Shown here: positions 1,034 through 37,601 of the stretch, piece by piece
How positions within the stretch are numbered: the first letter of the stretch is position 1
Layout: every line of letters begins with the position of its first letter
Assembly: GCA_001632435.1 (NCBI GenBank)
Contig: KV423991.1
Coordinates: forward strand, 38,108-102,107
DNA from: Calocera cornea HHB12733
Lineage: Eukaryota; Basidiomycota; Dacrymycetes; Dacrymycetales; Dacrymycetaceae
Length of the DNA: 64,000 nucleotides
Reading direction: 5' to 3'
Notes under the pieces: generated by a model
Database searches by the model: none
Told to the model about the DNA's origin: nothing
Seen by the model: only the letters and a program-made list of their open reading frames with translations
Made by a program: the position numbers and the translations under genes

Positions 1034-3373
1034 ATGCTGCGCAGCCCGCGCCTGCCCCTTTCCTACACGCGGCGCGGCCCGCACTCGCGCCTCACTCAAC
1101 GCGCCCCGCTCCCGCTCACCGCCTCCCTCCGCTCATACTCGTTCAATTTCTGGCGCCGCATCCCCCGCCCGCTGCGCGTCGTCCTTGTCTTAATGGGACT
1201 GGGGCTGGCGGTGGTGTGGTGGAACTCTGGAGAGGGGAGGCAAAGGGTGAGCGGGAAGGAGCTGGATGCGCTCCTGGGCAAAGGGGAGGAGCTGGTGTGG
1301 GACGTGCCTGAGCCCGACGGGAGCCTGGTGAAAGAGTCGAATCAGCAGATCTTCTCCGGGGACGAAGAAGAGGACTCTGCCGCAATCCCCGCACCTCGAC
1401 CACCAGCGGCAGAAGAGCCCACCCTCCGTCCAGCGATCCCCGACCCCCCTTCCCCTCCCCCAAAACCGCAGAACCCGCACATCCGCCCGCGCCCCGCTGA
1501 GGTCCCCGCGCACTCTTTCCTCCCCAATGGTCTGCTGGAAGTGAACCCCGCAGGCCGGCATCCGATATACGACCTTATAGAGCGGGCGGAGGAAGAGTGG
1601 GCTGCGAAGCTCGCGCGAGCTAGTAAGACGCTCGAGCAGGCCGTGGGGGAGTATAGGCGGCGGTACGGGCGGAAGCCGCCGAGGGGGTTCGACAAGTGGT
1701 GCGCTTTTGTTCTCGGGGCTTGGAGCCGTCTTGTGCAAGTGCTGATGGGACGGATAGGTGGGCGTACGTGCAGAGGCACGATGTGCAGCTGCCGGACGAG
1801 TACGACCAGATCCTCGCCGACCTGGGCGGGTTCCACGCGTACAGCCCGGCCGACCTGCGCCGGCTCCAAACGACGACGCGCAAGCAGCCGGGCACGTACA
1901 CGCTCGGCACGACGTCGGGATCGCGGGGGACAGTAGAGCTCCTCGCGTCCAGCCTCGCGCAGGAGGAGGAAGCGCGCGGGTTCGCCGCGGCGAGGGAGCA
2001 GCTGGACCTGCTCGCGGGGTTCGGCGAGGACTGGGTGGATGGGGAGACGCGGAGGCGCACGAGCGTGGGGCAGGAGATCTGGGCAGCAACAGGGGAGTGG
2101 GAGGCCACCTTTTCCCTTGATGGGCCAAGGGAGCTCGCGGATTGGGGCTTGTATGAGGAGAGGAGGCTCAAGGCCGAGGCGAGGGAATGTGCGCCTATTT
2201 TTTCCCGTTCCCCTCTCATGCAGTCGACTGACGGGAAAGGAAGATATGGGCCTATTTAGGAAATCGCAGTCCGACTATCTAGGCTGGGGCGCGGCTTGCC
2301 CGCCCTCCTCTCCCCTGCGGGAAGACTGGCCCTTTCCCCCCTCACTTCCCCTCCCCCCACCCAACCCAAAGACATTTGTCCACTCCCCGCTTGCCGCGAG
2401 CGACACCTGCCTTCACCCGCAGCTCGTGCAGACCTCAGAGTTCCTCCTGTCCTACCCTGGGCGCGGGCCCGTGCTGCCCCTGCAGCCGAGGCTGTGGTTC
2501 GGCGGGCGGAAGACGGCGGCGCATGGGGATGTGCTTGTTGCTGCTGGGTGGGCTGGGGAGGGGGAGAAGGTAAGGTGGGAGGAGAAGGAGGACAAAGCGG
2601 TATGGCGCGGTGCTGTGGGGGATCTGGAGGTGGGCGCGAGGGCGGAGCAGGGGGAGCGGATGCGGCTCGTGAGGATGGTCAATGAGCGCAGTGAGGCGGA
2701 CTATCCTGTGAGCACCGCGTTTCGCATACTGTACCCTGGATGAGGACTGATTGCAGAAGGTGCTGCTGCCCGGCTCGGACGTGGAGCGCGTGGGACAGGC
2801 AGAGCCTCGCTCCCAAGCCGTGCTGAACCGGCTCGCAGACGGCGCATTCACGGGCGAGGCTCCCTCCCAGCTCTCCAACCTCCCATTCGCTCCCCCCCTC
2901 ACCCCCGCCGAAGAAGCCTCTTACAAGTACCTCATCTCCCTTTCCGACCCCCCCTCTTCCTTCCTGCGCCTCCTAGGCTCGGGCAGCGTTGTGCTCCAGT
3001 CCTCCGTCTTCCAGGACTGGTACGCCGAGCGCATGCTGCCCTGGGTGCATTACGTGCCCCTCTCTACAGGGCTGAGCGAGCTGTACGACACGCTCCTCTT
3101 CTTCCGCGGTGATCCGGAGCGGGGAGTGCCGGGGCAGGACGCGCTCGCGCGCGCCATTGGGGATGCGGGCAGGGAGTGGACGCGCAGGTTTGGCAGGAGG
3201 GAGGATGCGGTGGCTTATACTGTGCGTTCGGTCCCTTTTTTCTCAATGGCGGAGAAGGCTGAAGGGAGGCGCAGTGGAGGCTCTTTTTGGAGTATGGGCG
3301 GCTCGTGAGCGACGAGCGGAACGCGATGGTGTACGATCTGCCCGAGCCGGAGCCAGAAGAGGAGGACGGCTGA
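1034..3373 (+). CDS. GT90 (CAP10-like) glycosyltransferase, type II membrane protein
   Basis: Predicted Golgi glycosyltransferase of the CAP10 family, whose characterised fungal members are beta-1,2-xylosyltransferases acting on capsule polysaccharide and glycolipids. Five exons fit well: 1034-1698, 1758-2188, 2244-2707, 2757-3221 and 3275-3373, giving about 707 residues. After a basic, proline-rich tail comes one hydrophobic anchor (VVLVLMGLGLAVVWW, near residues 55-70), then a Pro/Glu-rich stem. The catalytic part begins near the EYRRRYGRKPPRGFDKW block and continues through WAYVQRHDVQLPDEYDQI, AVWRGAVGD and LPWVHYVPLS. Exon 3 uses the acceptor at 2243, which keeps the frame aligned with the neighbouring paralog (YMGLFRKSQSDYLGWG). 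The next gene, on the same strand, is a clear paralog, so this is a tandem duplicate. The sugar donor and acceptor cannot be read from the sequence. Confidence 0.9.
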
Positions 3374-4268
3374 TCTGCATCCCTTTGATCATTCGGTAGT
3401 TGTGTGATGTGCTCTCCACGTACATATATCCGCAAGCACCATCAGCGCTATCCGTATGTATTCCCGCAGTTTTTGGTTATATGCACCCGCTTTGGACACT
3501 TTACCATCTTCCATTATTTCTCGTGACGGCTATCATACCTTAGTTCTCCTGCTGGTCATCTCTCCTCGACTTGGTGCCGTGTGTTGGTTTGTTATCTGTT
3601 GGGTATTTCGTTACAAAACAATCAAGGGTTGCTTGGGTTTGTGCGACAGAACTGGAAAATGTTTCAAGCTGATCGACGACACCGGAGCCGTAAGCCCACC
3701 ATACAGTAGGGACGCTCTCAGCATCCAACAATATCACCTAGCACGCCCTATGCCGCTCTGTGGCACTCGTCCCGTAACGCGCCTCCCATCCATTCGCCCA
3801 CGCCACTGTGCGCCGCCAAGAATGTCGGAATAAATTATGTTCCAGCCTGGACCCTTACGTTACCCCTGACCACGCGGGCCGGTGCGGGGGAAACAAGGGA
3901 CGAAGCGCCGAAAGGGCGGGCGGGTGACAGTCTGATCGCGGGTGCTTCTCCTGCTTCGATGATGGAAAAATCGGGAGGAATCCTGACTGTCACGCTATTA
4001 CGGCGGCCAAAATCGTAAGTCTTGCCGGCAAGCTGCATGTGTTGCAGCGAATCGTCCCCATGTGCTGAATCACCCCGACTGCTTGCTGGTCGGACCATGG
4101 AGACACCGCTGGGGTCGGACCGGCTCGCGCTGCTTTGCTTCACACCATCACACTCGCTTGTTTTTGCACATCTGCACTCGCTTGGCTTGTCTTAAACCAG
4201 CCTGGCAAGGTCTTGCTCTACAGTACTCCTTACACCGCGAACACCGACGCGACGCGCCGTTTCTGGAG
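3374..4268. other. Intergenic region between the two tandem GT90 genes
   Basis: This holds the 3' UTR of the first GT90 gene and the promoter/5' UTR of the second. Open frames here are short and unrelated to known families. The frame of the second GT90 gene stays open upstream to an ATG at 4062, but that extension has no GT90-like sequence. Confidence 0.5.
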
Positions 4269-7152
4269 ATGCCCCCTCCCTCCTCCCCGCGACCGCCGCC
4301 CTTCTCCCCCCGCTCCCCACGCTCACCTCGTCTCACCCGCCTACGCGCCCCGCACTCCCCCTACCTTTCCCGCCCACCCCCGTCCGCCCTCTCCCAATGG
4401 TCTCACTCCCTCCGTAGATATCGCTCCGTGCTCAAGCTCCTCCTCGCCGCTCTGGTGATCGCGAGCGTCGTGTGGATCTGGCAGCCTCGGGAGGTGGTGG
4501 TGCCCCAGGTGGGGGTGTGGAGAGGGAGGGAGTACGGAAGGTCGGGGGGAGGAGCGGGAGAAGGAGCGAGGATCTACTCGGAGGGACACGCAGCCATGTG
4601 GGAGGCGGAGAACCCCCATTCCCCGCCGGACGTCGCGGAGAGCGCGCTGCCAGGAAGTGGCAACGCTGAAACACAGGTCGCACCGGGAAGGTCTGACGCG
4701 CAGTCAGGACAGGGAGGACAAGGAGGACAGTCAGGAGAAGGTGAGGGGAAAGAGGAAGAAGAGGACGCCCGGGGCTGGGCCAAGGACCAGCAGCGCGCGC
4801 TGAGGTTCGAAGCCAAGCGGCGTAAAGAGGTCGAAGAGCTCGCCAAGGCTGCACCCCCACCCGAGGCCCCTCCCCCTCCTCCACCACCACCTCTTCCTCT
4901 GCAGCCACTGGCAAGGCCGCCTCTACAGCAAGTAAAGGGCGACCCGGGCCTGCGCGGGCTGCAGAGGCTGCAGATGGGCCGACAGCGCTTGCAGCAACAA
5001 CAGCAACAATTGCAACATGTGCAACAGCAACAGCAAGACCAGCGCGCCCGGCAACCGCAAGACGGCCGTCAACAGCTACAGCAGGAGCCTCAACAGCCAC
5101 CAGCGGCGGCCGGTGTTCAACAACCGCCGAATCGCCCCACCTTCGAGCACGACGAGGATCCGAATGTCGTGCGTGCCATGGATTTGGCTCAGCAGGGAGC
5201 GCCGCACTGGGGACCCGGGCGGGTAGGCGGGTTGGTGCGCCCTGTGCTCGTAGGTGCAGCGGAGCACATCCCGGCAGATCGCGTGCCCGTCCCCGTTCCT
5301 GAGCGTGCTGTAGGCGAGCAGCAGCCCCTTGACCCCGCCCTCGCCCTAGCAGCGGCGGCACCAGCATCTCCGGAGCTCAAGCCGCACACGTACCTCACCA
5401 ACGGGCTGGTGCTCACGAACCCCCTCGGCCGGCACCCGATCCTCGACCTCATCGTCCGCTCCTCCCGCGAGTGGCAGCTCAAGCTCGCGCGCCAGTCCCG
5501 CTCTCTCCCCGAGGCCGTGGCGGAGTACCAGCGGCGGTACGGGCGCGTTCCGCCGAGGGGGTTCGGCGCGTGGTGGGCCTATGTGCAGAGGCACGAGGTG
5601 CAGCTGCCCGACGAGTACGACCAGATCGCGCGGGACTTGGAGCCGTTCTGGGGGGTTAGTGCAAGTGAGGCGAGGGCGATGCAGGAGGTTGCCAGGGCGA
5701 GGGAGGGGACGTACACGCTTGTGAGCAGCCGGGAGCGTGGCCGGGTAGTGCTTGGCGGGCTGAGGGTGGAGAAGGAGGACGAGCCGCGTGGGATGGAAAG
5801 GGCGAGGGCGCAGCTCGAGCTTGTGCACGGGTTCGGGGCGGTGTGGTTGGACGAGAATGGGGAGAGGACCACGGTGGAGAGAGAGATTGTGAAGGCTACG
5901 GGCGACTGGGAAGTCACCTTCGGCGCCGGGGAGACGCCGCGGGAGCTGGTGGACTGGGAGGTCGACAACGACAGGAGGTGGAAGGCCAAGTCCGGGAAGG
6001 GTGCGTGCTGCTCGCGGAGTGAGGTGGGCTGATGCTGACCATCCACAGTGGTAGAAGTAGCGAGGAAAGGCAAGCAGGCGTACACTGGGTGGGCGGCCGC
6101 CTGCCCACCCTCGTCTCCATTGCGTGTCTCCTGGCCCCGCCAGCCAGACCTCCCGCTCCAGCCATCCGAACCCAAGACGTTCATCCACACGCAGCTGTCG
6201 GCCATGAACCCATGCGAGCACACCTGGCTCGTGCACACCTCCGGCTTCCTGATCAGCCAAGCGCGTGGGCCGCCGCTCCCAGAGACCGGCTCGCTGCTCT
6301 TCGGAACGAGCAAGACGAGTCTGCACGCGGACGTGCTGGCTGTGTCGACCGAGGGGTGGATCGAGGACGTCAGTGGGGACGTGCCATGGGAAGAGAAGCA
6401 GGACTCGCGCCTTGTGTGGAGGGGTAGCAACGCTGGTGTGCCGGCCACGCCGGAGAGCCGCTGGGAGGCGAGCCAGAGGATCAGATTTGTGGAGATGACC
6501 GGCGTGCACGATGCCCTCCTCCAGTACCCTGTGCGTTCGCGTCTTCTCGCTTTCAATGTCCCTGCATACTAACCATGAGCAGGTCCTCCTCTCCCAGGCA
6601 GACAACATGCCCGTCGGCCGTCCCCAGCCTCGCCCCCAAACCTGGATGAACGAACTTCTAACGGACGCCGCCTTCGTGCGCGGCCCCGTAGAGTGCTCCG
6701 CACGTGCCTGCGACGACCTCTGGGAGCGGTTCGAGTTCCGCTCCTCTATGCCCCTGGCCACGCAATACGGGTACAAGTACGCGTTCGACCTGGACGGGAA
6801 AGGGCCGAGCGAGCGATTCAAGCGACTCTTGACGTCGCGCTCGATGGTCTTGCAGAGCACGGGCTTCACGCAGTGGTACACAGATCGTATCCAGCCATGG
6901 GTACACTACGTGCCTGTCCAGGTGGACCTCAGCGATCTGTACGATATCCTCACCTTCTTCGCGGGTGACGTGGCTGCGGGTGGGAAAGGGGGACACGATG
7001 CGCTCGCGCGGGAGATTGCGCTGCAAGGGAGAGAGTGGAGCAGAGCGTTCTGGAGGAAAGAGGATATGGTGGCCTATACGTGGCGGCTCATGCTCGAGTA
7101 CGGCAGGGTGGTGAGCGACGACAGAGATAATATGGGGTTTGAGCTGCCTTGA
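4269..7152 (+). CDS. GT90 (CAP10-like) glycosyltransferase with long Gln/Pro-rich stem
   Basis: Second tandem CAP10-family enzyme, probably a Golgi xylosyltransferase-type protein. Three exons (4269-6000, 6049-6530, 6583-7152) give about 927 residues. It has a Ser/Pro-rich cytosolic tail, one anchor segment (VLKLLLAALVIASVVWIW, about residues 57-74) and an unusually long low-complexity stem with a polyproline run and a Gln-rich stretch near 4985-5100. The catalytic region carries the same landmarks as its neighbour: YQRRYGRVPPRGFGAWWAYV, RHEVQLPDEYDQI, RLVWRGSNAG and QPWVHYVPVQVDLSDLYDI. It has fewer introns than the first copy; the donor at 6001 and acceptor at 6048 restore a frame matching the first copy. 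An in-frame ATG at 4062 would add about 69 residues; I prefer 4269 because the intervening residues do not look like a Golgi tail. Confidence 0.9.
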
Positions 7153-7400: not shown

Positions 7401-8016
7401 TCAGTACCCCGCGCTCGTCAGGTAGTCGGCGAGGCTCTCGGTGACAGAGGCGGCCTCGGGGTTTTGGATCGGCGCGTCGTACTCCGCGACGAGGACGGTC
7501 TGCTTCGTCTTGTATAAAATGATGCCTTTTGTCTGTGGGGACGGTTAGCTGATGTCCCGCATGGACATTGAGCTGAACGCGCCTCCCGCTCACCATACAG
7601 CTTCGCTTTATCCGCCACGAGCGTGAAGAACTTGTACCCGCTCACACGCACCCCGCGATCCTGCGCCACCGTCGGGTCATTGAACACCTCGATGATCGCT
7701 TTCTGTTCCTCGGGGGAAATCTGTGGAGTGGAGAGTGCTGGGTAAGTCACCTGGGTGGGAACAGGGAGGCCAAGGAAGGGGCAATAGAGCAGGGGAGGGA
7801 GCAAGGCAGTGGGATGGTACAGAAGTGCAGTGGGTTGTAAACGCACGGTAAACCCGTTGGTGGTTGCCCACACGCCGCCCCTCAGGCCGAGGATCGCAGC
7901 GCGGGAGACCTTGCCCGAGCCCACGAGCTGATTGTCGACGTACGCTGGGCAGTGTCAGTAGCACGCCCCATTTCAACTCATCAGGGCAGGGGGAATAGCG
8001 CACATTGCCAGGACAT
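7401..8016 (-). CDS. Profilin (first of two tandem copies)
   Basis: Small cytosolic actin-monomer-binding protein that promotes ADP-ATP exchange on actin and delivers actin to formins. Exon 1 encodes only MSWQ plus one base (8016-8004); after an intron the frame resumes as SYVDNQLVGSGKVSRAAILG. The profilin core follows (GGVWATTNGF, EEQKAIIEVFNDP, GVRVSGYKFF) and the protein ends LADYLTSAGY. The actin-binding C-terminal helix and the N-terminal MSWQ-YVD signature are both present. As I can splice it, the loop after KLYG is shorter than in the downstream copy (KLYGKQGPNG); a different junction near 7530-7590 is possible. Four or five exons in about 620 bp. Confidence 0.93.
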
Positions 8017-21700: not shown

Positions 21701-21799
21701 GAGCGGGACGCACAGGAGCCAGGCAGAGCGCCGCTTGCGCTTGTCGGTGAGGACGAGCGGCTCGGCGGAGCGCGGGGCGTATCGGCGGCTGAAGAGCAT
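18742..21799 (-). CDS. GT90 (CAP10-like) glycosyltransferase, many-exon divergent copy
   Basis: Third CAP10-family enzyme in the window, predicted to act in the Golgi lumen. It starts MLFSRRYAPRSAEPLVL, has a membrane anchor LAINLMVLVALVAFATYRAF (about residues 45-65), a short stem, and the family blocks YQRRYGLAPPKGFDKWYEY, NGFQLVDEFDAIHEDL, DWLQPWVHFIPLSSTFEEL and, at the end, YRLCLEWARLWYQDEQEMDF. Between them is a region with GTEWDLDFCTHPEKFC and GRGPRSMDIRIPSYYYVVPL that the tandem pair lacks in this form. The gene is cut by roughly fifteen short introns, against two to four in the other GT90 genes, so it belongs to an older and separate subfamily. Start and stop fit the anchor and the last family block. 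Confidence 0.88.
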
Positions 21800-23538: not shown

Positions 23539-25481
23539 ATGTTCACGCGCCCCACGCTGCTGCTGCGCAAGCCCGCCGCCTCGCTCACGGGCGTCCTCCT
23601 CCTCCTCAGCGGCCTGCTGATCTACGCCTTCCTCGCCCCGGGCCCCTACCGCCCGCTGGACCGGCTCGACCTCCTGCACCTCCCGCACGTGCCCTCCCTC
23701 CTCCGCCCGCCGTCCCTCTCCCCGCCCGCCCAGGGCTCCTCCTCCTCCTCCTCGGCCTACTACTCCTCCTGGAACCGCCCCCAGATCCCGGGGTACTGCG
23801 ACCCGGGGTCGGCGGACGACGTGTGGGCGCACAAGTACACCGAGGAGAACTTGCTCCTCAGCCGTGCGTTCGGCGCGAGCGGGACACGCTTTCGCCGCCT
23901 CGTGCAGAAGGCGATGCGCGGCGAGCCGGTCAAGATGGGCGTTATCGGCGGGTCGGGTGCGTCCCCCCCCCCCTCCCTCGCTGACCTGCGAGCCAGGCTG
24001 ACGGTCTGCTGGGGAATATAGTGTCAAGGGGAAGGAACGTGCTCCCCTCCGAGACGTACCACGCGCGCATCTTCCGCATGTGGAACGAGACGTTCTTCCC
24101 CCACCCCGGGAACACCCTCGTTGACGGGTCAAAGGCCGCGACGGGCAGCAGGTACTTCAGCATGTGCTTCGGGTCGCACATCGACGAGGACGTGGACCTG
24201 GTGCTCGTCGAGCTGAGCATCAATGATCAGAGGTGCGCCCCCTTCTTTTCCTTGCCTCTCCGTCCGTCTCCGTGCGAAAAGAAGCTGATAGAGGGAACAG
24301 GCTGATGGAGAACGCGCTCGCGTGGGAGACGCTCGTCCGCGCGCTGCTCGAGCTGCCCAACGCGCCCGCCGTCATATCGACCAGCACGTTCGCGCTGCAG
24401 TTCATCCAGGGGTGAGTGGTGCGATTTCGCCTGCGCATGCGACGCAGCGCTGATGCTGGGCTCAGGCTCGGCGTAGGCGGCGACGTGCATCTCGGTGTGG
24501 CGAACTACTATGATATCCCCGTGATCAGGTGCGTTCCTCCTCATACCCTCGCTGCACTCGTTCCTTGGGGAACGCGCTCGCTCACCCTCCCCCCCTACAG
24601 CCTGCGCAACCCCATCCTCCCCTACCTCTTCGCGGACCCCGGTCTAGAATGGAAGATGTTCGGCTACTCAAAGGGCATCGACCGCCGGCACATGAACGCC
24701 CTGGGACACGAGATGCTCGCGGACTTTACGACGCACTGGATGCGCGACCAGGTGTGCAAGGTCCTCTCGGAGCGGGACGCCCCGCCCAGGGTCGAGAGCG
24801 CCGAGCCGAGCTGGTGGACGGCGCCCGTGGACATGGGCGAGGTGCCGCGTGTACGTGCCCTACCCCACCTTGTTCCGGTATGTATCCTAGTTACTGACGC
24901 CTCCCAGCTGCGCATGACGGACGTCTGGCTCAAAGTGAACGAGACGCAGATCTCCCTCCAGCCCAGCTGCAGGAGCACGACGACGACGCCGCGGCTCGAG
25001 CCCTCCTCCGCCTCCCCCGACTGGCACTTCGAGGAAGCCCCGCTCGGCAAGGCGTACTGGAGCGCGGACGTGCCCGGCGCGCAGATCTCCTTCGACGTCA
25101 CCACCGTCGAGGGCCGCGTGGGCGTCTTCTTCCTCCGCAGCCCGAAGCTCGGCTTGGGCAACGCCCGGTGCTGGGTGGACGGCAAGAGCACGGTCGGCGA
25201 GACCGCCGTCGGGTTCTGGGAGAAGGAGCAGTGAGTCCATCCCTCCATCCCTCCATCCCTCCATCTCCTATCCCCCCCTCGCAGTCGCAGGAACAGCGCT
25301 GACACCCCCTTGTGCTTTGCTTTGCTTTGCTTTGCGGCATGGTAGGAGCGTGGCGGACTATGTGGAGCTCGCGGAGCTCCTGGAGCCCGGAAAGCACACG
25401 GTCACGTGCGAGGTTACGACGGGCACGCGCGACCCGGGCGGCGGGCATGCGGTCAAGATCATGGGCCTGGCCAGTGTCTGA
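23539..25481 (+). CDS. Membrane-anchored SGNH esterase/acyltransferase-like protein with C-terminal beta domain
   Basis: Predicted lumenal or cell-surface SGNH-fold enzyme acting on glycans. N-terminal anchor SLTGVLLLLSGLLIYAFLA (about residues 14-32). Block I reads KMGVIGGS, intron, VSRGRNV, with the candidate Ser in GGS. LVLVELSINDQR supplies an Asn-containing block, GVGGDVHLGVANYYDIPVIS follows, and GIDRRHMNALGHEMLADF gives a classic DxxH pair. A separate C-terminal domain (SFDVTTVEGRVGVFFLRSP, DPGGGHAVKIMGLASV) looks beta-rich. About eight exons. The last intron (25230-25345) carries two microsatellites. It has a clear paralog at 35.7-37.6 kb, and it is not close in sequence to the GDSH pair at 14-18 kb. 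Whether it hydrolyses or transfers acyl groups is unknown. Confidence 0.75.
25235..25336. repeat. Two microsatellites inside one intron (TCCATCCC and TTTGC units)
   Basis: The last intron of the SGNH gene contains about four copies of an 8-bp TCCATCCC-type unit (25236-25265) and about four copies of a 5-bp TTTGC unit (25314-25335). The intron is about 116 bp, twice the local norm, because of them. Confidence 0.85.
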
Positions 25482-25835: not shown

Positions 25836-27695
25836 TCATCTCTCCCTCACACCTGGCCGCACGTTCTCTACAGGCGGCGGAACAGTGGTCTTTGATCTGC
25901 TCCACTGCAAGAACGTGACTGGGCCGTCCTTCCAGCTCTGCACTCGTTTGCTCGCGACAACGCTGAGCGTGCTATGGTCCGTCCCGACGAACCCGTCCGC
26001 TAGGGAGTGGATCGCGCTATCGAGCAGCACCGTGTACCTGTGATTCGTTCAGCGCTCTGCCATGAAGCACCTCAGGGAAAACCCACCAGCAGCCGTATCG
26101 CTCGCAGGTACGCTCCCTTCCGTGGTCGATATAGTGCCACCCACGCTCGTGGATCGCCGCCCACCAAGCCGGGTCCGTCTCGTCGCTCGATACGAAGACG
26201 TGTGGGGTGCTGAGTCCCTTTGCTTCCAACCGTTCCTGAAGCTCCTCTATCGCCGCCGCGGCCATCTCGTTGGTTGGCATGCAGCTTCCCTTGCCGGCGT
26301 AACAATACCCGGACATGTCCCCTCTTCGTAAGTGCAGCCCGATGTACTGATACATAACCATAAGCACATGTTTCCGCAATTCAACCTGTCTGCTCACCGG
26401 TGGGGTCGGCCCATCATCTGGTAGGCCAAATAGGCGGTTGAGGTAGCGCTTCGCAAGCAGCTCAATCTCCGGATTCCACGTCAGATACTGGCCAATCTTG
26501 TTCCAGACCGGATCCCAGTCCTGACTCCAATGCTCGACCGAGTCCACAGTAGCGTAGAAGAGAGTGTCGAAGCACATGAGCTGGTCATCTGGCTCGGTGA
26601 AGTTCTTGTACCGAAGCGACGGCTGCGTGAGATTTTGCGAGAGCGCCCATGTTCGCTCGGACGGGTACCCGAGGTGCGCGAGCTTCAATATATCCGTGTA
26701 TAATCGTTGCCCATCGAGGCGATATCGATCCGCTGAGCGAAGGTTAGCTTAGCTGAAGAGCATATAGGCGCAACTTGCGATCAAGATAGGTATACGAAAC
26801 ATCTGCGTAACGGATTTCAGAACATAGCTTCCCGGCTCGACAGTGCAACTTACCGAGTTTCAAGAAATCACTAGCCGGAGAGGGGATGTGTGTTGTACCC
26901 CCAGCAGTCAATGCACTCCAGCACCCGATGTCCTCCCACTCTTTCGCTAGCGCGGCGTTCTGAGTGGGCTCCACGTTCTTCAAGTCGCGCCATTCGACGA
27001 TATCCAGCTTGACCTGCTTTCGCAGTCTGTCGAGGTCGAACACGTCGCCAAACGCTATCTGGCCCGCTGAGTGGTTCAGATGCGGGCCGGGGACGAAGGG
27101 GGGCATGATTGCTACTCGGTCGGTGTACCAGGCCAAGTATAGGAGGCTCAAGTAGCCATAAATTTGGTTGGCTGCCGGTCACGGTCAGCATTGGCACCAG
27201 TCTCCTAAAAGATGACGCACTGAATCCAGCATCTGTGAAGCCAGTCACGTATTTCGTGTCGGTCTTCAAACGGTCTAGTTCGCAGTCAGCGACAGCTGAC
27301 ATGATGATGAGCGACAGCGAACCTTTGTAACGATCGGTGATTTCCCCCTGCACGTGCGGCGATGAATCGCCCAGCCAAGCACTGACCCTTTCCGGGCCCA
27401 CGGAACGCGTTGGAGGGTCCATATAACGCATACCAGACAGTGCAGCTCCAGCGCATACCACAAGGACCAGCCAGAGTAAGACTACGCGTGTACGAATGCG
27501 ACGTTGTCGCGTGTTCGCTTGTTTCGTAGACGTCCTGCTGTCCGCCAAATTCTCATTTGGCCAGGCTGACGACCTATCATGGGTGCCTTCTTCGGCAGTA
27601 CCGGACGTTTCGCCATCAGTGTAGAGCGATGTGTCTTCGGCGCTGTAAACTGACAGTTGCTGATAGAGAGTACCTTGCTTGCCCTTCGTGGGCAT
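25836..27695 (-). CDS. O-fucosyltransferase-like (GT65/GT68-type fold) membrane protein, copy A
   Basis: Predicted type II ER/Golgi glycosyltransferase of the O-FucT superfamily, which uses GDP-fucose in its known members. It starts MPTKGKQGTLYQQLSVYSAE, with an anchor near VVLLWLVLVVCAGAALSGM. The donor-binding signature is YIGLHLRRGDM, with the HxRRxD arrangement typical of these enzymes. The C-terminal block is VFVSSDETDPAWWAAIHERG, then LLDSAIHSLADGFVGT and HSTLSVVASKRV, a standard O-FucT ending. Other landmarks are LGYPSERTWALSQNLTQPS and EPDDQLMCFDTLFYATVDSV. The intron at about 26060-26105 restores CWYTVLLD. Copy B to the right is very similar. Base composition is visibly less GC-rich than in the GT90 genes. 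The acceptor and true donor sugar are unknown. Confidence 0.78.
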
Positions 27696-28149
27696 GGTGC
27701 CTACAAGTGCAGGCAGGCGGTGTTGAGGAAGACTGGGTCGCACCGCCCGCACGCGTTCCAGCGGACGATTTCAGACTTGCTTTCATTAGTTACAGTGACG
27801 TACTGTAGGTCGCGTCGCGTCGGGCCAGCCGGAGAGCCACCGGGGGTTCCCATGCGGGAGCCGCGCCGCCGCAAGAAATGCCACAAGCCGATCGGATGGG
27901 CTACAGTCGCGCGCCTGGAGGGGAGCACAGTATCTTGTACGTGTGTACCGAGACCACGAAGGACGGGATATGCCATATATCTGGCAAGCCGAGAGAGCGC
28001 CACGATTATGAAGCGGCAGCAATGGGGCCAAATAGTAAGCGGAGGAAACCATGATCGGATGGCTTGGAAGGGACGGGTGTTTTGACCTCGGATGTGTGCG
28101 CCACACGATGCCCTGTGGAACTCTATTATTCTCCGTGACTCTATTTCAA
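27696..28149. other. Intergenic region upstream of O-FucT copy A
   Basis: Promoter side of copy A. Parts of it, such as the sequence near 27750-27800, resemble the equivalent stretch upstream of copy B (30340-30400), as expected if the whole unit was duplicated. No intact gene. Confidence 0.5.
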
Positions 28150-28420
28150 TTCAGACAGTCCATTATCCATCTTAATGACAAGACCGCCCACGGCTGTAAT
28201 CCTCCTTGCCGGGATTGCCCTCCGCCTCTGCCTTTGCAATCTTGCAGACCACCCCAGCCTGGCTCAACCCGTACTGAAAGCACTCTGGACTTGCTCATTC
28301 GTCTCGATCAAGCCGAACTCAGCGTAGTCGAACACATGTTCCTCCATATGTGCTTGTATGAGCGTGCTCTGCGGCTTCATGTTGTGTAGCGGCCACCGGG
28401 GAAAACTATCACAATGCCAT
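28150..28420 (-). pseudogene. Decayed 3' fragment of the sphingolipid desaturase gene
   Basis: This interval aligns by eye with the 3' UTR and last ~70 codons of the intact desaturase at 30.75-31.0 kb, in the same orientation. The best stretch is GCCTTTGCAATCTTGCA, identical in both (about 28229 and 30819), and similarity continues on both sides with many substitutions and no open frame. The match stops about where copy B of the O-FucT-like gene ends. It is best read as the truncated tail of a former desaturase copy left at the joint of a tandem duplication. It cannot encode a desaturase: the His-box region and the cytochrome b5 domain are absent. Confidence 0.8.
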
Positions 28421-28422
28421 CA

Positions 28423-30286
28423 TCACTCCCTGGCACTGGGCCTCGCGCTCTGTGCAGGCGGCGGGACAGTGACCTTTGACCTGTTCCAACGCAAGAACGA
28501 GACCGGTCCATTCTTCCAGCTCTGCACCCGTTTACTGGCGACAACACTCAGTGTGCTGTGATGCGTACCCACGAAGCCGTCCGCGTGAGAGTGGATCGCA
28601 CTGTCGAGTAGCACCGTGTACCTGCTGCCAGGTCAGCGCTCTGCTATGGGACACATCAAGAGAACGTACCAGCAGCCATACCGCTCGCAAGTGCGCTCTT
28701 TTGCATGGTCGATATAGTACCACCCGCGCTCACGGATCGCAGCCCACCACTCTGGGTTCGTTTCATCGCTCGATACGAAGACGTGCGTTGTCCTGATGCC
28801 CCTTTTCTCCAGCTGCTGCTGGATTTCCTCAATGGCAGCGGCAGCCATCTCGTTCGTCGGCATGCAGCTGCCGCTACCCTTGTAACAATATTCCGCCATG
28901 TCCCCGCGTCGTAGGTGCAGCCCGATGTACTACATGCAAGTCAATTCAAGTCTATGGTAGACAATGACTTGCTCACCGGCGGTGTCGGACCATGCTCCGG
29001 TACACCGAGCACTCTGTTCATATACTGCATTGCCAGCCGCTCGATCTCCGGTCTCCAAGTCAGATACTGGCCAATCGAGTTCCACACCGGATCCCAGTCC
29101 TGACTCCAGTTGTCGACTGAGTCAACCGTGGCGTAGAATAGAGAGTCGAAGCACATGAGCTGGTCGTCTGGCTCGGTGAAGTTCCTGTACCGGCGCGAGG
29201 GATGGGTGAGGTTTTGGGATAGCGCCCATTCTCGCTCGGAGGGATAGCCGAGGTGCGCGAGCTTCACGATGTTGGAGTATAGCCGCTGGCCATCGAGGCG
29301 ATATCGATCGGCTGGTGAAGAACACTATCAGACCTCAGACCAGGTTTCGGCCATTCTGTCGTAGCTTACGATCAAGGTAGGTATATGACACATCTACGCA
29401 ATGATATCAGACGCCATTAGCCCTGAGAAAGAAATCACCGCACCGAGCTTCAGAATATCACTGACAGGTGAGCGCTGAAGCTTTTCGCCCCCGGCAGTCA
29501 ACGCGCTCCAACAACCAATGCTCTCCCATTCCTTGCCCGCGGCCGCAATCTGGGTCAGCTCCACTCTCTTTAGGTCGCGCCATTCGAGGATGTCCAACTT
29601 GAGCTGCATCTTCAGCCTGTCGAGATCGAACACGTCGCCGAACGCTATCTGGCCGGCTGTATGGTTCAGATGCGGCCCGGGGATGAAGGGAGGCATGACG
29701 GCTACTCGGTGGGTGTACCACGCAAAATACAAGAGGCTCAAGTAGCTGTATACTTGATTGGCTGCCATCTAGATGTCAGCATATGCAGTTGACGGATAAC
29801 GAGCGACATACTGAAACCGAAATCTGTAAACGCAGTCACATATTTCGTGTCATTCCTCAATCGGTCTATGTAACAATTAACATTGGTGGCACAGGGAACG
29901 GAGGGGGACGAACCTCTATATCGTCCCGTGATTCGCCCTTGCAGGTGTGGGGACGAGTCGCCCAACCACGCGCCAATCCTCTCCGAGCAGACGGAGCCCA
30001 ACGGATCCTCCAGATGGTATAACACAGAGAGTGCAGCTCCAACGAGCACCACAGCGCATAGCCCAAGCAGGACTAGACGTGGACGAATGCGGAGATGTCG
30101 TGTGCCCGCCTGTTTCGCGAACCCACCACTGTCTCTCTTCTCGTTTAACCGCGATGCCCACCTGCCATCGCGAGGAGATTCCTCATCTGCCCCAGACGCT
30201 TCGCTTGTAGGGTAGATCGAGATGTCTTCAGCGCTGTACAGAGGTAGCTGCTGGTATAGAGCACCTTGCTTGCTCTTCGGCGGCAT
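28423..30286 (-). CDS. O-fucosyltransferase-like membrane protein, copy B
   Basis: Tandem duplicate of copy A with the same start (MPPKSKQGALYQQLPLYSAE), anchor (VLLGLCAVVLVGAALSVLY) and intron layout. The signature YIGLHLRRGDM is intact, as are VFVSSDETNPEWWAAIRERG, LLDSAIHSHADGFVGTHHST and VVASKRVQSW. The charged tail after the last block (SKVTVPPPAQSARPSARE) also matches copy A in position. Differences are spread through the protein, mostly conservative, so both copies look functional and under constraint. It lies between a desaturase remnant (left) and the intact desaturase (right), all on the minus strand. Function as for copy A: probably transfer of a deoxyhexose or related sugar to protein or glycan, not proven. 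Confidence 0.78.
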
Positions 30287-30787
30287 AGTGGTGCGAGTAC
30301 GTCCTGGACGACGGGGACGAGCAGGACTAGATGCTGTCGCGTACACGCGTTCCCGCAGATGATTGCATTCCGTCTGTCATTACGGTCATGTCTTCGAAAT
30401 GCGTATTGTGTGCCGTCCGGCTGGTCGGGCGCGCTCGTGCCTTGTCACTTGAGGGCTCGCTGCAAGAAGTAGCACAAGCAAACGGGCAGATGGCCTAACG
30501 TCGCGTGTTGCGGTAGTTGTCTTGCAGGCAGATCACAACGGATGAGATACTGCACATGGCCAAGCCCGGGCATGGCCAAGCCGGAGAGAACCGAGATAAT
30601 GCAGCCGTAATACGAGCAAACAACAGAGCGGGAGGCTTGGAACCGGTGCGGGCGGACCACAAGAAATATCAGGGCCGTCCCTCGGGCCTAGCCCTGAGTG
30701 GCGCAGCATATTGAACTCTAACGTCCAATACTAAGTTACTACGTGGCCAACAATATTCTATTCCAATTCTATGTACAGTCCATTGCT
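30287..30787. other. Intergenic region between O-FucT copy B and the desaturase
   Basis: Promoter of copy B and 3' UTR of the desaturase. The right end, with an AT-rich stretch at 30715-30785, has a counterpart at about 28125-28195 beside the desaturase remnant. No gene. Confidence 0.5.
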
Positions 30788-32382
30788 CTAGTTCCCCTGG
30801 CTGAGGTTCCCCTCCGCCTCGGCCTTTGCAATCTTGCAAAACACCTCGACCTGGTTCGCCACGTCCCTGAGCACACCCAGGACTTGCCCGTTGGTCTCAA
30901 ACAACCCGAACTCGGCATACTCCAGCCCGTTCTCCTTCGCGTATTCCTTCACGAGCGCGGAAGCAGCCTTGAGGTTGTGCCGCGGCAGGCGTGGGAAAAG
31001 GTGGTGCGTGACCTGCAGCTGGAGGCCGCCGTGCATCCACGCGAGCGCGTCGGGGCAGGAGATGTCGGTCGTCGTGCGCAGCTGGCGGTCGGGGAAGGAC
31101 TCCCACGGGCCCATGTCTACCGTCGACCGCGCAAAGTGGGACTGGACGATCTGCACGTGCACGGGCGAGGGCACGATCTGAGATATCATGAAGAACGCGA
31201 GGCGGGTGCGCCAGTCCGGAACACCGCTCAGGACGAGCCCGAACCATGTCCAGAATAGTGCGATGCAGACAAACTCGGCGGTGCGCCACTTGCCACGGTC
31301 GCCCTTGGCCAGGAAGACGTACGAGTTGGCGTACAGGTTGAATCGCGCGAGCGAGAGGATCACGTAGTAGAGATAGGGCTGGAAGCGGATGAGGAATCGC
31401 GACGGAGCATCGAACTCCATCACGCGGTTGTAGTACGTCGACCAGAGGGAATTGAAGAACTGCGGGGTGATAGCGAAGAAGGGGATGTGTTGGATGTCCG
31501 GGTCGTGCGTGGGGTGGTTTGTTACGACTGTAGCAGCATAATATAAGCATTTCGCCGCATATATGTGGGGATATGGGACGCACGATGATGAACGTTGTGA
31601 TTGTCCACCCACCACCCGATGCTTAGCCCACCCAGGAAGTCCGCGATAAAAATGCCCAGCACTCTGTCAATCGTCCAGTCGTGGGTGACCCCGCAATGTC
31701 CAAGGTCGTGGGCCGTGAACGTCAACTGATGCCAGAAAATACCCAGCGACACCGCGCTGAGGAGGTACCATTCCCTCCGGTACAGCCAAACGGCCAGCGC
31801 AGCAAACAGCGTGTACCTGAGGACCTCCGGCCCGTACCCGGTGATGTAGCGGCACTGGTACAGGCCCTTGCTCTTGATCTGCTCGTGCAGCTCGCGGAGG
31901 GCGATCGCGTGCGAGTGCTGCGCCTTCTGGAGGAGCGTCGTCGGCTGAGGCTCCAGCGCGCTGAGCGGCGGGCCGGCGGGGTCAACCAGGTCGGCTTTCT
32001 TGACCAGCAAGATCTCGCGCTCGTCGTGTGTGTCCACATGCCCCGCCTCGTTCACCCAGCGCACCTTGCCGTCCTTGCCTTCCTTGCGCACCCACCCCGT
32101 TTCCAGGGGCGGCATGAGCGGTGTCCAGCCCTCGGCGCCGTACTCCACGCGGCCGACGACGAAGTGCGGGAGCCGTCCGAGCAACGTCTGCGGGGAATGG
32201 AACCCGTCGATCTCGCATGTCGCGTCGCGCCCCACGAAGTGAAGAATGGCGAGCTTGCCGCCGGGGTGCTGGGCGAGCCATGCATCCGAGATCTTCAGCA
32301 CTTGGCCGTTGTAGATGACGAGAGATTGGCCGGCTCGGACACCTTGTGCGACCTCTTCGCGCGTCCACAATCGGTCCTTCAT
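30788..32382 (-). CDS. Delta-8 sphingolipid desaturase with N-terminal cytochrome b5 domain
   Basis: ER membrane enzyme that inserts the delta-8 trans double bond into the sphingoid base of ceramide, a step toward fungal glucosylceramide. The N-terminal cytochrome b5 domain shows the heme-binding AWLAQHPGGKLAI motif. The desaturase part has the three histidine boxes in the right order: HDLGH, HNVHH, and the b5-fusion type QVTHHLFPRLPRHN with Gln replacing the first His. One intron (about 31527-31586) splits the text after HNVHH and restores LVTNHPTHDPDIQHIPFF, a hallmark of this family. About 510 residues. It starts 328 bp from a divergently transcribed O-FucT-like gene, and a broken copy of its 3' end lies at 28.2-28.4 kb. 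All metal ligands are present. Confidence 0.95.
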
Positions 32383-32710: not shown

Positions 32711-34326
32711 ATGAGAGTGGGTGCGCTCTCGTTGACGGACGGCTCGGTGCTCCTGCGCGCATGGTCTGCTCATAGGAGACGACAAGGGCCGCTGTTGTGC
32801 GCCCTGGGAGTGCTGCTATGGGTGGTTTACCATCTGCCAGTATGGCAGAGGCTGCGGGTGCAGGAACGTTCCAAAGTTGCTACTGCGTCGAACGTAACTA
32901 CGGATGAGGACGATCCGTACCATCCCTCAAAGTATACGGTGCTAGGCGGGCCCTCGATTGTGTTTTCAAGTGAGTTTGCTTACCATAGTCCATTAGTCAT
33001 ACTAACAGCCATACCAGCCAATCTCAAGCCCGAATATAGGTACATCACGGGATGGCTCAATTCCGGTTGGAGTGCGTAACCCCTCCTCTCCGTCCATTCC
33101 ATGCACCTAACATTCCTTCAGCGAACGACGTGATGACCTATGCGAACCTGCTGTACCTCGCGCACCTCACCTCGCGCATTGCCGTCCTAGGCCCCTTCGT
33201 CCCCTCCCATCTCGACATCAGCGCCGGCTACCTCCCCTTCTCCGAAGTGTTCGACATCCCGCACCTCGCGCGCGCCTTGCACATGCCTATAATGGAGTGG
33301 AGCGATCTCAAGAGCGCTGAGAGTGAGGTGGCGGAAGAGATGGGCTGCTGGAGCACGTGGATGAGCTACTCAGGTGCAGCGGGAAACGCGAGGAGCGGCT
33401 GGGTACCGGATACGTTTGCGCTCGATGTGAGCTATACGCCTGTGCCGCGTGCGTGCGCATCTCCCTTCTGGCCGGAGGATGTTTGTTGCTGATGATGTAC
33501 GTCCACAGCGGAGATATACGAGCACAACGCGCCGAACGATCCGCATATAACGTTCGCCTCGCTCCTCCCGCTCGCCTTTCCTGAAGGGCGCTCCTCCGCC
33601 CTAACGAAAGTCTCCCCGGCGCCCTCCGAGCCGTGGGGAACGGTGATGCCCCCCTCGGACCACCTACTGTGCTTCGACGTGCTGTACTTTGTGCAGGTGG
33701 GGATGAGCGGGGCCGAGTGGGGGGAGGAGTATGCGCCGGTGTGGAGGCTGGTGGGCAGGGAGATGCGGTGGGCAGGGCCGTTGAGGGAGAAGGCAGACCA
33801 GTACTTGCGCAGTCACTGGGGCGTGGAGGAAGAGGAGGAGATCCCTCCGGTGCGCTGCTTTCGCATTCTTTCATTCTATTGCGATGCTGATAGAAATCCG
33901 CAGTACATCTCTGTGCATGTGCGGCGGAATGACTTCCGGGACTACTGCTCCGGCACGCTCACCTGTATGCCCACGCTCGCCCAGCTCCAGCGGCGCGTCT
34001 CCGAAGTCCAATCACGCCTCCTAGCGGAACAAGGCCTCTCCGTCCCCAATGTGCTCGTCACGTCGGACGAGCAGTCCCCTGCCTGGTGGTCCGAGGTGCA
34101 CGCGCTGGGGTACACGAGCATGAACCACACCGAACTGAATACGGAGGGGAAGTATGGCGAGTGGTACCCCAGCGTGCTGGACGCGGTGTTCCTCAGCCTT
34201 GGGAAGGGTTTCGTGGGCACCGAGGGGAGCACGATGAGCTTGCTGGCGCGGAGGAGGGTCGAGGACTGGGGTGGGGGAGTCGCGACGTGGTTGAGGTGGA
34301 TGGGGGTGGCGCAGGAAGAACTGTAG
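32711..34326 (+). CDS. O-fucosyltransferase-like membrane protein, divergent copy C
   Basis: Third O-FucT-superfamily protein, on the opposite strand to copies A and B and clearly more diverged. It starts MRVGALSLTDG with an anchor around PLLCALGVLLWVVYHLPVW. The order of landmarks is the same: YRYITGWLNSGWS, intron, NDVMTYANLLYLAHLTSRIA, PFSEVFDIPHL, MPPSDHLLCFDVLYF, the donor-site block YISVHVRRNDFRDYC, LVTSDEQSPAWWSEVHALGY and LSLGKGFVGTEGSTMSLLAR. Here the signature reads HVRRNDF, closer to classical O-FucT enzymes than the HLRRGDM of A and B. About six exons. The frame is open to the TAG at 34324-34326. Neighbours are the desaturase (divergent) and, 1.4 kb away, an SGNH gene. Confidence 0.76.
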
Positions 34327-35735: not shown

Positions 35736-37601
35736 ATGCTGTCACGCCAAGCCGCTGTACCCCTGGCAGCCGTCCTCTCTCTCAGTACATTACTGGTGTA
35801 CTTCTTCCTATTAGACTCAAACGAGGATTCCTTCTACTCACTGGAACGAATCGACCTCAGCTTCCACTTGCCACAAGTGCCCACTGTTTTTCGGCCTTCG
35901 TCATACAGTCCCCTATGGAGCCGACCCGACATACCAGAGTACTGTAGCCCCGGTTCGACGGCCGACTTCTGGTCAGAGAGGTACAGGGAAGAGAACCTGC
36001 TGCTGTCGCGCGCGTACAGCGCTAGTGGCACTAGGTTTAGGAGGGTCGTAGCGAAGGCAATGCGAGGGGAGCCTATAAAGATGGCGGTACTTGGCGGGTC
36101 CGGTACGCTCGTGTCGCGTACGATATCTGTGCTTGGGCTAATGCTGAACACCTGCAGTTTCAAGAGGACGCAACTCCTTCCCAGGAGGACCGTATCATGG
36201 TCGTATCTTCCGCACGTGGAACGAAACGTTCTTCCCACATCCACAGAACACGATAGTTGATGGGTCCCGGCCGGCTACAGGCACGAAGTACTTCAGCATG
36301 TGCTGGGGAGAGCATATTCCGGAGGATATTGACTTGGTGTTCCTGGAACAGAGCATCAACGACCGAAGGTACGTGGCCGACGCGTTCCATATTCCCTATC
36401 TGTGCAGAGTATGCTGATGCTCTCAACAAGAACAATGGAGTCCGCGGACAACTGGGAGACGCTGGCACGCTCTCTGCTAGAGCTGCCCCATAACGTGGCA
36501 GTGATTTCGATCAGCACTTTCGCTCTAGAGTTTGCACAAGGGTGAGTAACAAGGGACAGCATCTGGCGCATAGCTGAGCCAGGGATAGCATCGGCAACGG
36601 AGGCGATGTGCACCTCGCGGTTGCGCAATATTATGATATTCCCGTAATCAGGTGCGAATTCCGGTCTTCTTTAATCGCACCCACACTGATGGTCCCACAG
36701 CATCAGAAATGCTATACTGCCACATCTCTTCGATGATCCCGCGCTCGAGTCAGAGGTATTCGGTGATGTGGAAAGTCCTGACCACAGCATTGACCGCAAG
36801 CACATTAACGCCCTAAACCATCAAATACTCTCGGATTTCACCACCCATTGGATGAAAGATCACATCTGCAAGGTTGCGTCCGAACAGGTGAGCCCCTATT
36901 ACTCCCTGGAATAATAAATGCTGACAAAGCTTGACGCAGGACGCTCCTGCGGCGCCGCCGGGGCGAGATCATCATTCGATGGAAGGCTGGTGGAATGCCC
37001 CCGTCGACATGGCAACGGTGCCTCGAGTATGTTCAGGCTTTTTTCGTGCTTGAGTTTCCGAAGTGACAGACTTCCAGTTACGCATGTCCGAGCCGTGGAC
37101 CACTGTGAACCAGACGAGACCCCCCTTGCAACCTAGCTGCAAGAGCACGACATCAGAGCCACGTCTGGCGCCGTCCTCCACAGACGGATGGTCGTTTGAA
37201 GAGGCACCAGGGGACAAGTTTTACTGGAGCGCGGACACCGTTGGGGCTCAGATACATTTTTCCGTTCATACTGTCAGTGGGCATGTAGGCATGTTTTTCC
37301 TCCGCAGCCCAAAACTCGGGTTAGGGAACGTGCGTTGCTGGCTGGACGGGAACCTGAAAGGGAGTAAGGTAGTGGAGGGTTACTGGACCAAAGACGTGTG
37401 AGTCTATACCGCCATGTTTAGTTCCCGCGAGCGCGGCTCTAACGACCACCTGCGTTTGTCGTTAGGAGCACCGCCGAATTTATTGAGCTTGCCACAGAGC
37501 TCCCTACCGGCACGCACGAATTGACCTGCGAGATTGCACGCCAAACGAAGGACCCAGGCGGTGGACACGCGTTCAAGATCATTGGCCTAGCAACTGTATA
37601 A
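35736..37601 (+). CDS. Membrane-anchored SGNH esterase/acyltransferase-like protein, low-GC paralog
   Basis: Paralog of the gene at 23.5-25.5 kb with the same domain order and exon junctions. It starts MLSRQAAVPLAAVLSLSTLL (signal anchor). The nucleophile block is KMAVLGGS, intron (36102-36157), VSRGRNS. Then come RIFRTWNETFFPHPQNTIVD, VFLEQSINDRR, GNGGDVHLAVAQYYDIPVIS and SIDRKHINALNHQILSDF (DxxH). The C-terminal beta domain includes SVHTVSGHVGMFFLRSPKLG and DPGGGHAFKIIGLATV. All probable catalytic residues are kept, so it is not a pseudogene. Compared with its paralog, coding sequence uses many more A/T third positions, so the two copies have lived under different compositional pressure or one was moved from elsewhere. 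Confidence 0.75.

What the first reader, a model, noticed from the sequence alone, without database searches (positions are those of the whole stretch)
1034..37601. Dense cluster of glycan-building and glycan-decorating enzymes
Within 37 kb there are three GT90, one GT18-like, three O-FucT-like and four SGNH proteins, nearly all with one N-terminal membrane anchor and lumenal catalytic part, plus a sphingolipid desaturase. Such a mix of transferases and probable O-acyl esterases/transferases is what a pathway building and acylating one surface or lipid-linked glycan would need. In Cryptococcus, capsule genes of these families are mostly scattered. The profilins and triosephosphate isomerase in the middle argue against a simple operon-like cluster. 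No clustering of this set is known to me.
Basis: partly seen in the sequence, partly recalled or inferred. Interest (0 to 1): 0.88.

Follow-up and report, generated by a model that had tools for sequence, protein, structure and literature searches.

The report
Glycan-decorating gene cluster in jelly fungus
A jelly fungus carries about 22 genes for building and trimming sugar coats packed into one 75-kilobase stretch of its genome; two related jelly fungi carry counterparts of several of them together on one stretch too, so this may be a locus that makes part of their gel or cell-surface sugar.

Summary
The window is contig C78 of Calocera cornea HHB12733 (Dacrymycetes, jelly fungi). The set runs left to the contig end: about 22 secretory glycan genes in ~75 kb (5 GT90, 4 O-FucT-like, 3 GT61-like, 3 GT18-like, 3 SGNH with a C-terminal domain, 3 PC-esterase-like, 1 unassigned), among about seven unrelated genes. 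Of the members found in this genome, 3 of 3 GT18-like, 3 of 3 PC-esterase-like, 3 of 4 SGNH and 5 of 9 GT90 lie here. Relatives of the PC-esterase-like, GT90 and O-FucT genes share one contig in C. viscosa and one scaffold in Dacryopinax. The genome encodes enzymes towards GDP-fucose, UDP-xylose and UDP-galactose, and two CAP59-type genes elsewhere. Best reading: a Golgi kit that decorates a secreted or wall heteroglycan with fucose, probably xylose, and acetyl; possibly the gel. Against: no polymerase or exporter found inside; unrelated genes between; no expression data; ordinary synteny not excluded. Ten literature searches showed no such cluster. Polymer, shared pathway and gel link are inference.

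The parts
1034..3373 (+). GT90 glycosyltransferase c, N-terminal anchor
   Evidence: genome Pfam search, 23.4 bits alone and 24 with its neighbours, the cut-off; 37-47% to other GT90s; anchor
4269..7152 (+). GT90 glycosyltransferase d; groups with one gene each on the C. viscosa 119-kb contig and the Dacryopinax 961-kb scaffold
   Evidence: 56.9 bits
11920..13456 (-). GT18-like glycosyltransferase c
   Evidence: PF15024 42.8 bits over cut-off 28; MGAT5 chains in PDB E 1.1e-5; 3 of 3 genome copies on this contig
13915..15437 (-). PC-esterase/TBL-like protein 2 (P0001, CALCODRAFT_498379)
   Evidence: GDSHD and YDGKQHF motifs; top fold match XOAT1 from a low-confidence model
16288..17923 (-). PC-esterase/TBL-like protein 3 (P0005, CALCODRAFT_498385)
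   Evidence: the published model ends before the second motif
18742..22187 (-). GT90 glycosyltransferase e, divergent (first predicted as two models)
   Evidence: BLAST to the other GT90s, single-gene model; no Pfam GT90 match for the two exons tested
23539..25481 (+). SGNH hydrolase-like protein 2 with C-terminal domain
   Evidence: RiCE17 chain 6hfz E 9.3e-14 with GGS, SxND and DxxH regions aligned
25836..27700 (-). O-FucT-like protein 2 (P0032, CALCODRAFT_344209); upstream end approximate
   Evidence: PF10250 52.3 bits over cut-off 31.5
28410..30290 (-). O-FucT-like protein 3; exon frames open, boundaries approximate
   Evidence: tblastn up to 72% to copy 2; frames; genome hits
30788..32382 (-). 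cytochrome-b5/fatty-acid desaturase; possible bystander
   Evidence: PF00173 42.2 bits; PF00487 22.5 bits, below its cut-off, for the first exon
33133..34326 (+). O-FucT-like protein 4 (P0034); the published protein is longer at its N-terminus; groups with one gene each in C. viscosa and Dacryopinax
   Evidence: 30.8 bits against a cut-off of 31.5
35736..37601 (+). SGNH hydrolase-like protein 3 with C-terminal domain; exon boundaries approximate
   Evidence: tblastn, ORFs, genome hits, comparison
7401..8016 (-). profilin, unrelated gene inside the cluster
   Evidence: PF00235
10195..11206 (+). triosephosphate isomerase, unrelated gene inside the cluster
   Evidence: PF00121 292 bits

Best explanation
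A glycan-decoration gene cluster of Dacrymycetes. Its products are mostly single-anchor (type II) Golgi enzymes. GT90 and perhaps GT61 members add pentose or hexose side residues (by analogy with Cryptococcus Cxt1, beta-1,2-xylose), O-FucT-like members add fucose from GDP-fucose, GT18-like members add a further sugar. PC-esterase/TBL-like members O-acetylate, and SGNH/CE17-like members transfer or remove acetyl. The likely acceptor is a secreted or cell-wall heteroglycan, probably mannose-based, whose backbone would be made by enzymes encoded elsewhere, such as the two CAP59-type genes on C90 and C170. The end product may contribute to the gelatinous matrix. Shown: gene content, clustering, hydrophobic anchors, catalytic motifs, co-location of relatives of three families in three genomes, and nucleotide-sugar genes. 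Inferred: donor and acceptor specificities, Golgi location, one shared pathway, and the link to gel.
For: 22 genes of six families plus one unassigned in C78:1.2-75.7 kb. Of the members found in this genome: PC-esterase-like 3 of 3, GT18-like 3 of 3, SGNH 3 of 4, GT90 5 of 9, O-FucT 4 of 9, GT61 3 of 7. PC-esterase-like, GT90 and O-FucT relatives on one contig in C. viscosa (3, 1, 2) and one scaffold in Dacryopinax (1, 2, 1); trees group several of them one-to-one across species. O-FucT model (mean pLDDT 88.5) matches POFUT1 first, and all 50 listed matches are fucosyltransferases. SGNH2 matches RiCE17, described as a 2-O-acetylesterase on mannan (PMC9487903, passage). The PC-esterase-like model has xylan O-acetyltransferase XOAT1 as top match. 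Genes for GMD, UDP-glucuronate decarboxylase and GalE. A CAP59-type gene next to the fourth SGNH gene on C90.
Against: No polymerase or transporter found among the modelled genes, and no clear nucleotide-sugar enzyme: the NmrA-like protein passes the broad Epimerase model by 1.8 bits but is NmrA at 125.6 bits. C78 4.3-11.3 kb has no model. SNARE, ribosomal S11, two profilins and TPI lie between. GT90 copies on C186, C50 and C60 branch among the cluster copies, and four O-FucT copies sit on C199, so the families are not confined to the cluster. The C90 SGNH copy next to CAP59 seems to lack the catalytic Asn and His, which weakens that link. The XOAT1 match rests on a model of mean pLDDT 50.8 with small GTPases at similar E-values. 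No expression or chemistry.
Confidence: 0.5

Rival explanations
1. No shared pathway: a region where old tandem duplications of several basidiomycete Golgi enzyme families accumulated, kept together by ordinary synteny within Dacrymycetes.
For: Adjacent same-family pairs (GT90c/d, PC-esterase-like 2/3, GT61b/c, GT18a/b, O-FucT2/3); interspersed housekeeping genes; the other two assemblies are of the same class.
Against: Six families co-locate, far more than random placement gives (families chosen after the fact); tandem duplication cannot bring different families together; members of one family are also dispersed among the others over tens of kb.
Confidence: 0.3
2. The cluster acts on glycosphingolipids (inositol phosphoceramides), with the desaturase as part of the pathway.
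For: Desaturase between O-FucT genes, and a fragment of its tail beside O-FucT3; Cxt1 also xylosylates cryptococcal glycosphingolipids (title of reference 32 in PMC12493134).
Against: No inositolphosphotransferase or ceramide glycosyltransferase among the modelled cluster genes; lipid specificity of the desaturase untested; two kinds of O-acyl enzymes fit a polysaccharide better (inference).
Confidence: 0.1
3. The cluster makes the acylated long-chain glycolipids known from Dacryopinax spathularia (sugar part recalled, not looked up: xylose-xylose-glucose).
For: The class makes such glycolipids (PMC11066560, passages); GT90-type Cxt1/2 are beta-1,2-xylosyltransferases (PMC12493134, passages; the GT90 label is recalled).
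Against: No polyketide synthase, P450 or transporter among the modelled cluster genes; 17 of 18 enzymes tested carry a membrane anchor of the Golgi type.
Confidence: 0.05
4. The set glycosylates secreted proteins, like animal POGLUT1 (GT90) and POFUT1 (O-FucT) on EGF repeats.
For: Closest solved structures of GT90 and O-FucT are POGLUT1 and POFUT1.
Against: Acceptor repeats were not searched for; O-acyl enzymes and five divergent GT90s do not fit a single protein O-glycan (inference).
Confidence: 0.05

Closest known systems
Galactosaminogalactan (GAG) gene cluster of Aspergillus and other Ascomycota (PMC4817252, PMC8224951 and PMC11356417, starts of abstracts in a search listing only)
   Same: A fungal exopolysaccharide gene cluster that combines synthesis with de-acetylation of the glycan
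   Different: About five co-regulated genes including a synthase and an epimerase; here about 22 genes of other families, no synthase found, interspersed housekeeping genes, co-regulation untested
Cryptococcus GXM/GXMGal capsule enzymes (Cxt1/2, Cas1, Cas3/Cap64 family, Cap59; PMC12493134 and PMC12892975, passages)
   Same: Xylosyltransferases and O-acetylation proteins decorating a mannan; CAP59-type genes are present in this genome
Fucose-containing GXM-like polysaccharide of Tremella (PMC8355462, passages)
   Same: Jelly-forming basidiomycete, GXM-like glycan with fucose; CAP homologues and a putative GDP-fucose synthase reported for two basidiomycete genomes
   Different: Not Dacrymycetes; no multi-family gene cluster for it in the passages seen

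Membership tests
GT90 (PF05686) | Match over the Pfam cut-off of 24 bits | tested here: met
   GT90d 56.9, a 49.7, b 26.9, c 23.4 (24 with its neighbours); GT90e not matched, by homology only
GT90 beta-1,2-xylosyltransferase (Cxt1-like) | Transfers xylose from UDP-xylose to mannose | not testable with these tools
   Only a Vanrija homologue named beta-1,2-xylosyltransferase 1 appears, 37% identical to the first row of A1; it branches outside the Dacrymycete clade
GDP-fucose O-FucT (PF10250) | Match over the cut-off of 31.5 bits, and fucosyltransferase fold | tested here: met
   O-FucT1 46.9, O-FucT2 52.3 (met), O-FucT4 30.8 (just below); Foldseek POFUT1 E 1e-14 for O-FucT1; O-FucT3 by homology only
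GT18 (PF15024) | Match over the cut-off of 28 bits | tested here: met
   GT18c 42.8 bits, residues 276-413 of 437; copies a and b by homology to it only
GT61 (PF04577) | Match over the cut-off of 27 bits | tested here: inconclusive
   GT61b 33.2 in the genome search but no match for the exon piece; GT61a 14.5 and GT61c 17.2; homologous to one another
SGNH/GDSL (PF13472), CE17-like | Pfam cut-off 32.9 bits | tested here: not met
   24.5 and 19.0 bits; RiCE17 chain matched at 54.3 bits with aligned GGS, SxND and DxxH regions: works like, not filed as member
PC-esterase/TBL (PF13839) | Pfam cut-off 27 bits | tested here: not met
   13 bits in 1 of 5 proteins, no match in the other 4: works like, not filed as member
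PC-esterase/TBL (PF13839) | GDS serine motif and D..H motif near the C-terminus (PMC2824669, passages) | tested here: inconclusive
   GDSHD in 5 of 7 published models and D-x-x-Q-H in 5 of 7; the gaps look like mis-splicing; spacing is DxxxH, not DxxH
Fungal exopolysaccharide gene cluster of the GAG type | Contains a polysaccharide synthase | tested here: not met
   None among the gene models of C78; C78 4.3-11.3 kb has no model
Fungal exopolysaccharide gene cluster of the GAG type | Co-regulated expression | not testable with these tools
   No expression data at hand
Cas3/Cap64 family | Sequence homology to Cap64/Cas3 | not tested
   No reference sequence fetched; family limited to Basidiomycota per PMC8374607 (passage)

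The most novel reading that the evidence does not exclude
The first large exopolysaccharide gene cluster recognised in a basidiomycete: a Dacrymycete locus that assembles and acetylates the fucose- and xylose-bearing gel of jelly-fungus fruit bodies, built by duplication of an ancestral GT18 / PC-esterase-like / GT90 / SGNH / O-FucT cassette. The same order and orientation of these five recurs in the two halves of the cluster; signed shuffles reach this in 1 to 5% and unsigned ones in 22%, so it is only suggestive, and the GT90 tree does not support it.
Probability: 0.25. Interest if true: 0.85.

Novelty: new variant of a known kind. Interest (0 to 1): 0.62.

Why it matters
Basidiomycete surface polysaccharides are studied mainly through Cryptococcus capsule genes (general knowledge). 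A dense locus in a harmless wood-decay fungus would offer a ready list of enzymes to assay, could show how fucose, xylose and acetyl are put on such glycans, and would make the origin of the jelly texture a testable genetic question: gelatinous genera of Dacrymycetes against crust-like Cerinomyces.

Tried and rejected
Home-made gene finder: the first version merged almost everything into five genes and stopped with an error; it was replaced by one with costlier introns and gene starts. It mis-splices some genes: in PC-esterase-like genes it lost the SHD of GDSHDRNN, so the published proteins P0001-P0007 were used instead. Forced single-gene models returned nothing for O-FucT2, O-FucT3, SGNH3, GT18a, GT18b, PC-esterase-like 1, the unassigned gene, or C78 4.8-11.2 kb on either strand; O-FucT3, SGNH3, GT18a and GT18b rest on tblastn.

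Block duplication: same signed order in both halves, but shuffles reach it in 1-5% (signed) and 22% (unsigned), and the GT90 tree does not pair GT90a with GT90e; not claimed. Profile search of the PC-esterase-like alignment against PDB sequences gave only chance-level matches. GT61a has no PDB relative (best E 0.74). NCBIfam named none of P0034, P0001 and P0008. The gene at C78 25.5-27.2 kb has no Pfam match; that it may be a glycosyltransferase is by eye.

Conservation outside Dacrymycetes could not be decided for GT90 and O-FucT: candidate lists were cut at about 8000, and known C. cornea copies are missing from them (all its GT90s; O-FucT3 and the C199 and C2 copies). By eye, no contig length is shared between the non-Dacrymycete rows of the two lists, but the species hardly overlap. 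The PC-esterase-like search listed only Dacrymycetes, with a single-sequence query. SGNH, GT18-like and GT61-like relatives were not searched for in other species. GDP-fucose synthase was not sought with a dedicated query.

Literature: searches showed no report of such a cluster; the library holds only open papers, only the listed rows were looked at, and no paper was read whole.


Full report
Identity of the window. The window is G000:C78:38108-102107; C78 has 143,544 bases in a 32.1-Mb assembly of 302 contigs. A predicted protein of the window is 99% identical to CALCODRAFT_498379 of Calocera cornea HHB12733, on a contig of exactly 143,544 bases; this is a dacrymycete. Window position plus 38,107 gives C78 position.

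Gene content. A self-trained gene finder with short introns was run on the whole contig and checked by Pfam, BLAST and published proteins. From left to right in C78 coordinates: GT18a at 1.2-2.4 kb and GT18b at 3.4-4.2 kb (minus; core exons only); PC-esterase-like 1 at 11.3-12.7 (minus); NmrA, a longin/synaptobrevin SNARE and ribosomal S11; GT61a 18.0-19.7 (minus); GT90a 20.3-22.7 (minus); SGNH1 23.4-25.3 (plus); an unassigned gene with an N-terminal hydrophobic segment 25.5-27.2 (minus; no Pfam match); GT61b 27.9-29.8 and GT61c 30.2-32.1 (minus); GT90b 32.6-34.8 (minus); O-FucT1 35.7-37.1 (minus). Inside the window follow GT90c, GT90d, two profilins, TPI, GT18c, PC-esterase-like 2 and 3, GT90e, SGNH2, O-FucT2, O-FucT3, a cytochrome-b5 desaturase, O-FucT4 and SGNH3, ending at window 37.6 kb. 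That makes 11 glycan-type genes in the window and 11 to its left, 22 in about 75 kb. To the right lie other genes, among them a WSC/GH71 protein. One further GT61-like gene stands alone at window 84350.

Is it more than chance? Genome-wide searches gave: SGNH 3 on C78 and 1 on C90; GT18-like 3, all C78; PC-esterase-like 3, all C78; O-FucT 4 on C78, 4 on C199, 1 on C2; GT61 4 on C78 (3 in the cluster), 1 each on C35, C10 and C26; GT90 4 on C78 plus GT90e by BLAST, 1 each on C186, C60, C50 and C231. These are exon-wise searches and lower bounds. Counting each family once per place gives 17 loci; random placement put five or more of the six families into one 75-kb stretch in 0 of 100,000 trials and four or more in 3. 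The choice of families was made after seeing the cluster; with an assumed 100 to 300 comparable loci in the genome the corrected probability is 8e-5 to 0.04.

Conservation. PC-esterase-like: 7 proteins at E of 0.001 or less, all 7 Dacrymycete: three on the C. cornea contig, three on one 119,386-base contig of C. viscosa, one on a 961,128-base scaffold of Dacryopinax primogenitus. O-FucT: 65 listed, 6 of them Dacrymycete, 3, 2 and 1 on contigs of those same three lengths. Quick trees (SH-aLRT support only) group GT90d with one gene of each foreign species, GT90b with a second Dacryopinax gene, O-FucT4 with one gene in each species, PC-esterase-like 1 and 3 each with a C. viscosa gene, and 2 with one gene of each. 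So parts of the cluster predate the split of these genera. Cautions: the GT90 and O-FucT lists were cut at about 8000 candidates and miss known C. cornea copies; queries were the cluster genes themselves; sharing a 961-kb scaffold is not close linkage; and contigs may be collinear throughout, so conserved co-location is not by itself evidence of selection. GT90 copies on C186, C50 and C60 branch among the cluster copies.

What the proteins look like. A single hydrophobic segment in the N-terminal part was found in 17 of 18 cluster proteins tested, as expected for type II Golgi enzymes. O-FucT: a model of O-FucT1 from 39 sequences (pLDDT 88.5, pTM 0.89) matches POFUT1 best (E 1e-14), then POFUT2, FUT8 and NodZ. 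GT90 profile: the three solved chains matched are POGLUT1, POGLUT2 and rumi. GT18-like: MGAT5, E 1.1e-5. SGNH2: RiCE17 (6hfz), E 9.3e-14, with the GGS, SxND and DxxH regions aligned and an insignificant second match in the C-terminal domain; a review describes RiCE17 as an SGNH plus CBM35 enzyme with mannan 2-O-acetylesterase activity (PMC9487903, passage). PC-esterase-like: no Pfam match over cut-off, but a GDSHD motif in 5 of 7 published models and a D-x-x-Q-H motif in 5 of 7, close to the pattern described for PC-esterases, whose spacing is DxxH (PMC2824669, passages). A low-confidence model (mean pLDDT 50.8) has the xylan O-acetyltransferase XOAT1 as top match, E 6e-4, TM 0.32, followed by small GTPases at similar E-values, so this is a lead supported by the motifs.

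Donors and backbone. The genome has GDP-mannose dehydratase (C100; five exon matches of 242.7, 99.4, 70.1, 68.6 and 29.2 bits; no single exon reaches the cut-off of 415, the sum of about 510 is mine), UDP-glucuronate decarboxylase (C84; one 54-residue exon matches 2b69 at 66.7 bits; partial model) and UDP-glucose 4-epimerase (C2, 306.2 bits over a cut-off of 262.3). CAP59-type matches (PF11735) lie on C90 (226.4 bits) and C170 (116.1 bits), none on C78. On C90 the CAP59-type gene and the fourth SGNH gene are divergent neighbours whose predicted ends overlap, a contextual tie between this SGNH family and mannan; but that SGNH copy seems to have lost the catalytic Asn and His.

Interpretation. 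The simplest reading is a set of Golgi enzymes that decorate a secreted or wall heteroglycan with fucose, probably xylose, and O-acetyl groups. In Cryptococcus, Cxt1/2 xylosylate the capsule polysaccharides, and Cas1 and the Cas3/Cap64 family are putative O-acetyltransferases (PMC12493134, passages; PMC12892975, passages). A fucose-bearing GXM-like polysaccharide is reported for Tremella (PMC8355462, passage). Dacrymycetes are mostly gelatinous, with Cerinomyces traditionally crust-like (PMC8645972, start of abstract in listing), so a role in the gel is attractive but untested. Glycosphingolipid, Dacryopinax-type glycolipid and protein-glycosylation readings are less likely, since their own core enzymes or acceptors were not seen here.

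Verdict. No report of such a cluster was found in the ten literature searches made, within an open-access library.

Noticed in passing
G000:C90:87336-91452: CAP59-type gene and a fourth SGNH-like gene as divergent neighbours; the SGNH copy seems to lack catalytic Asn and His
   Followed up: partly
G000:C199:8000-27700: Four O-FucT-like genes by tblastn in 20 kb, a second concentration of this family
   Followed up: partly
window 28214-28404: Fragment matching the tail of the desaturase at 30788, next to O-FucT3: trace of a local segmental duplication
   Followed up: partly
window 9047-9775: Second, diverged profilin copy next to the first
   Followed up: no
window 45835-48850: Predicted protein with WSC domains and a GH71 glucanase domain
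   Followed up: no
window 43225-44581: ORFs that look by eye like a DDE transposase; no Pfam match for the larger one
   Followed up: no
window 84350-86114 (C78:122457-124221): Stand-alone GT61-like gene 64% identical to GT61b of the cluster
   Followed up: no
C78:1-75705: GT18(-) PC-esterase-like(-) GT90(-) SGNH(+) O-FucT(-) recurs in the same signed order in both halves; 1-5% of signed shuffles reach it
   Followed up: partly
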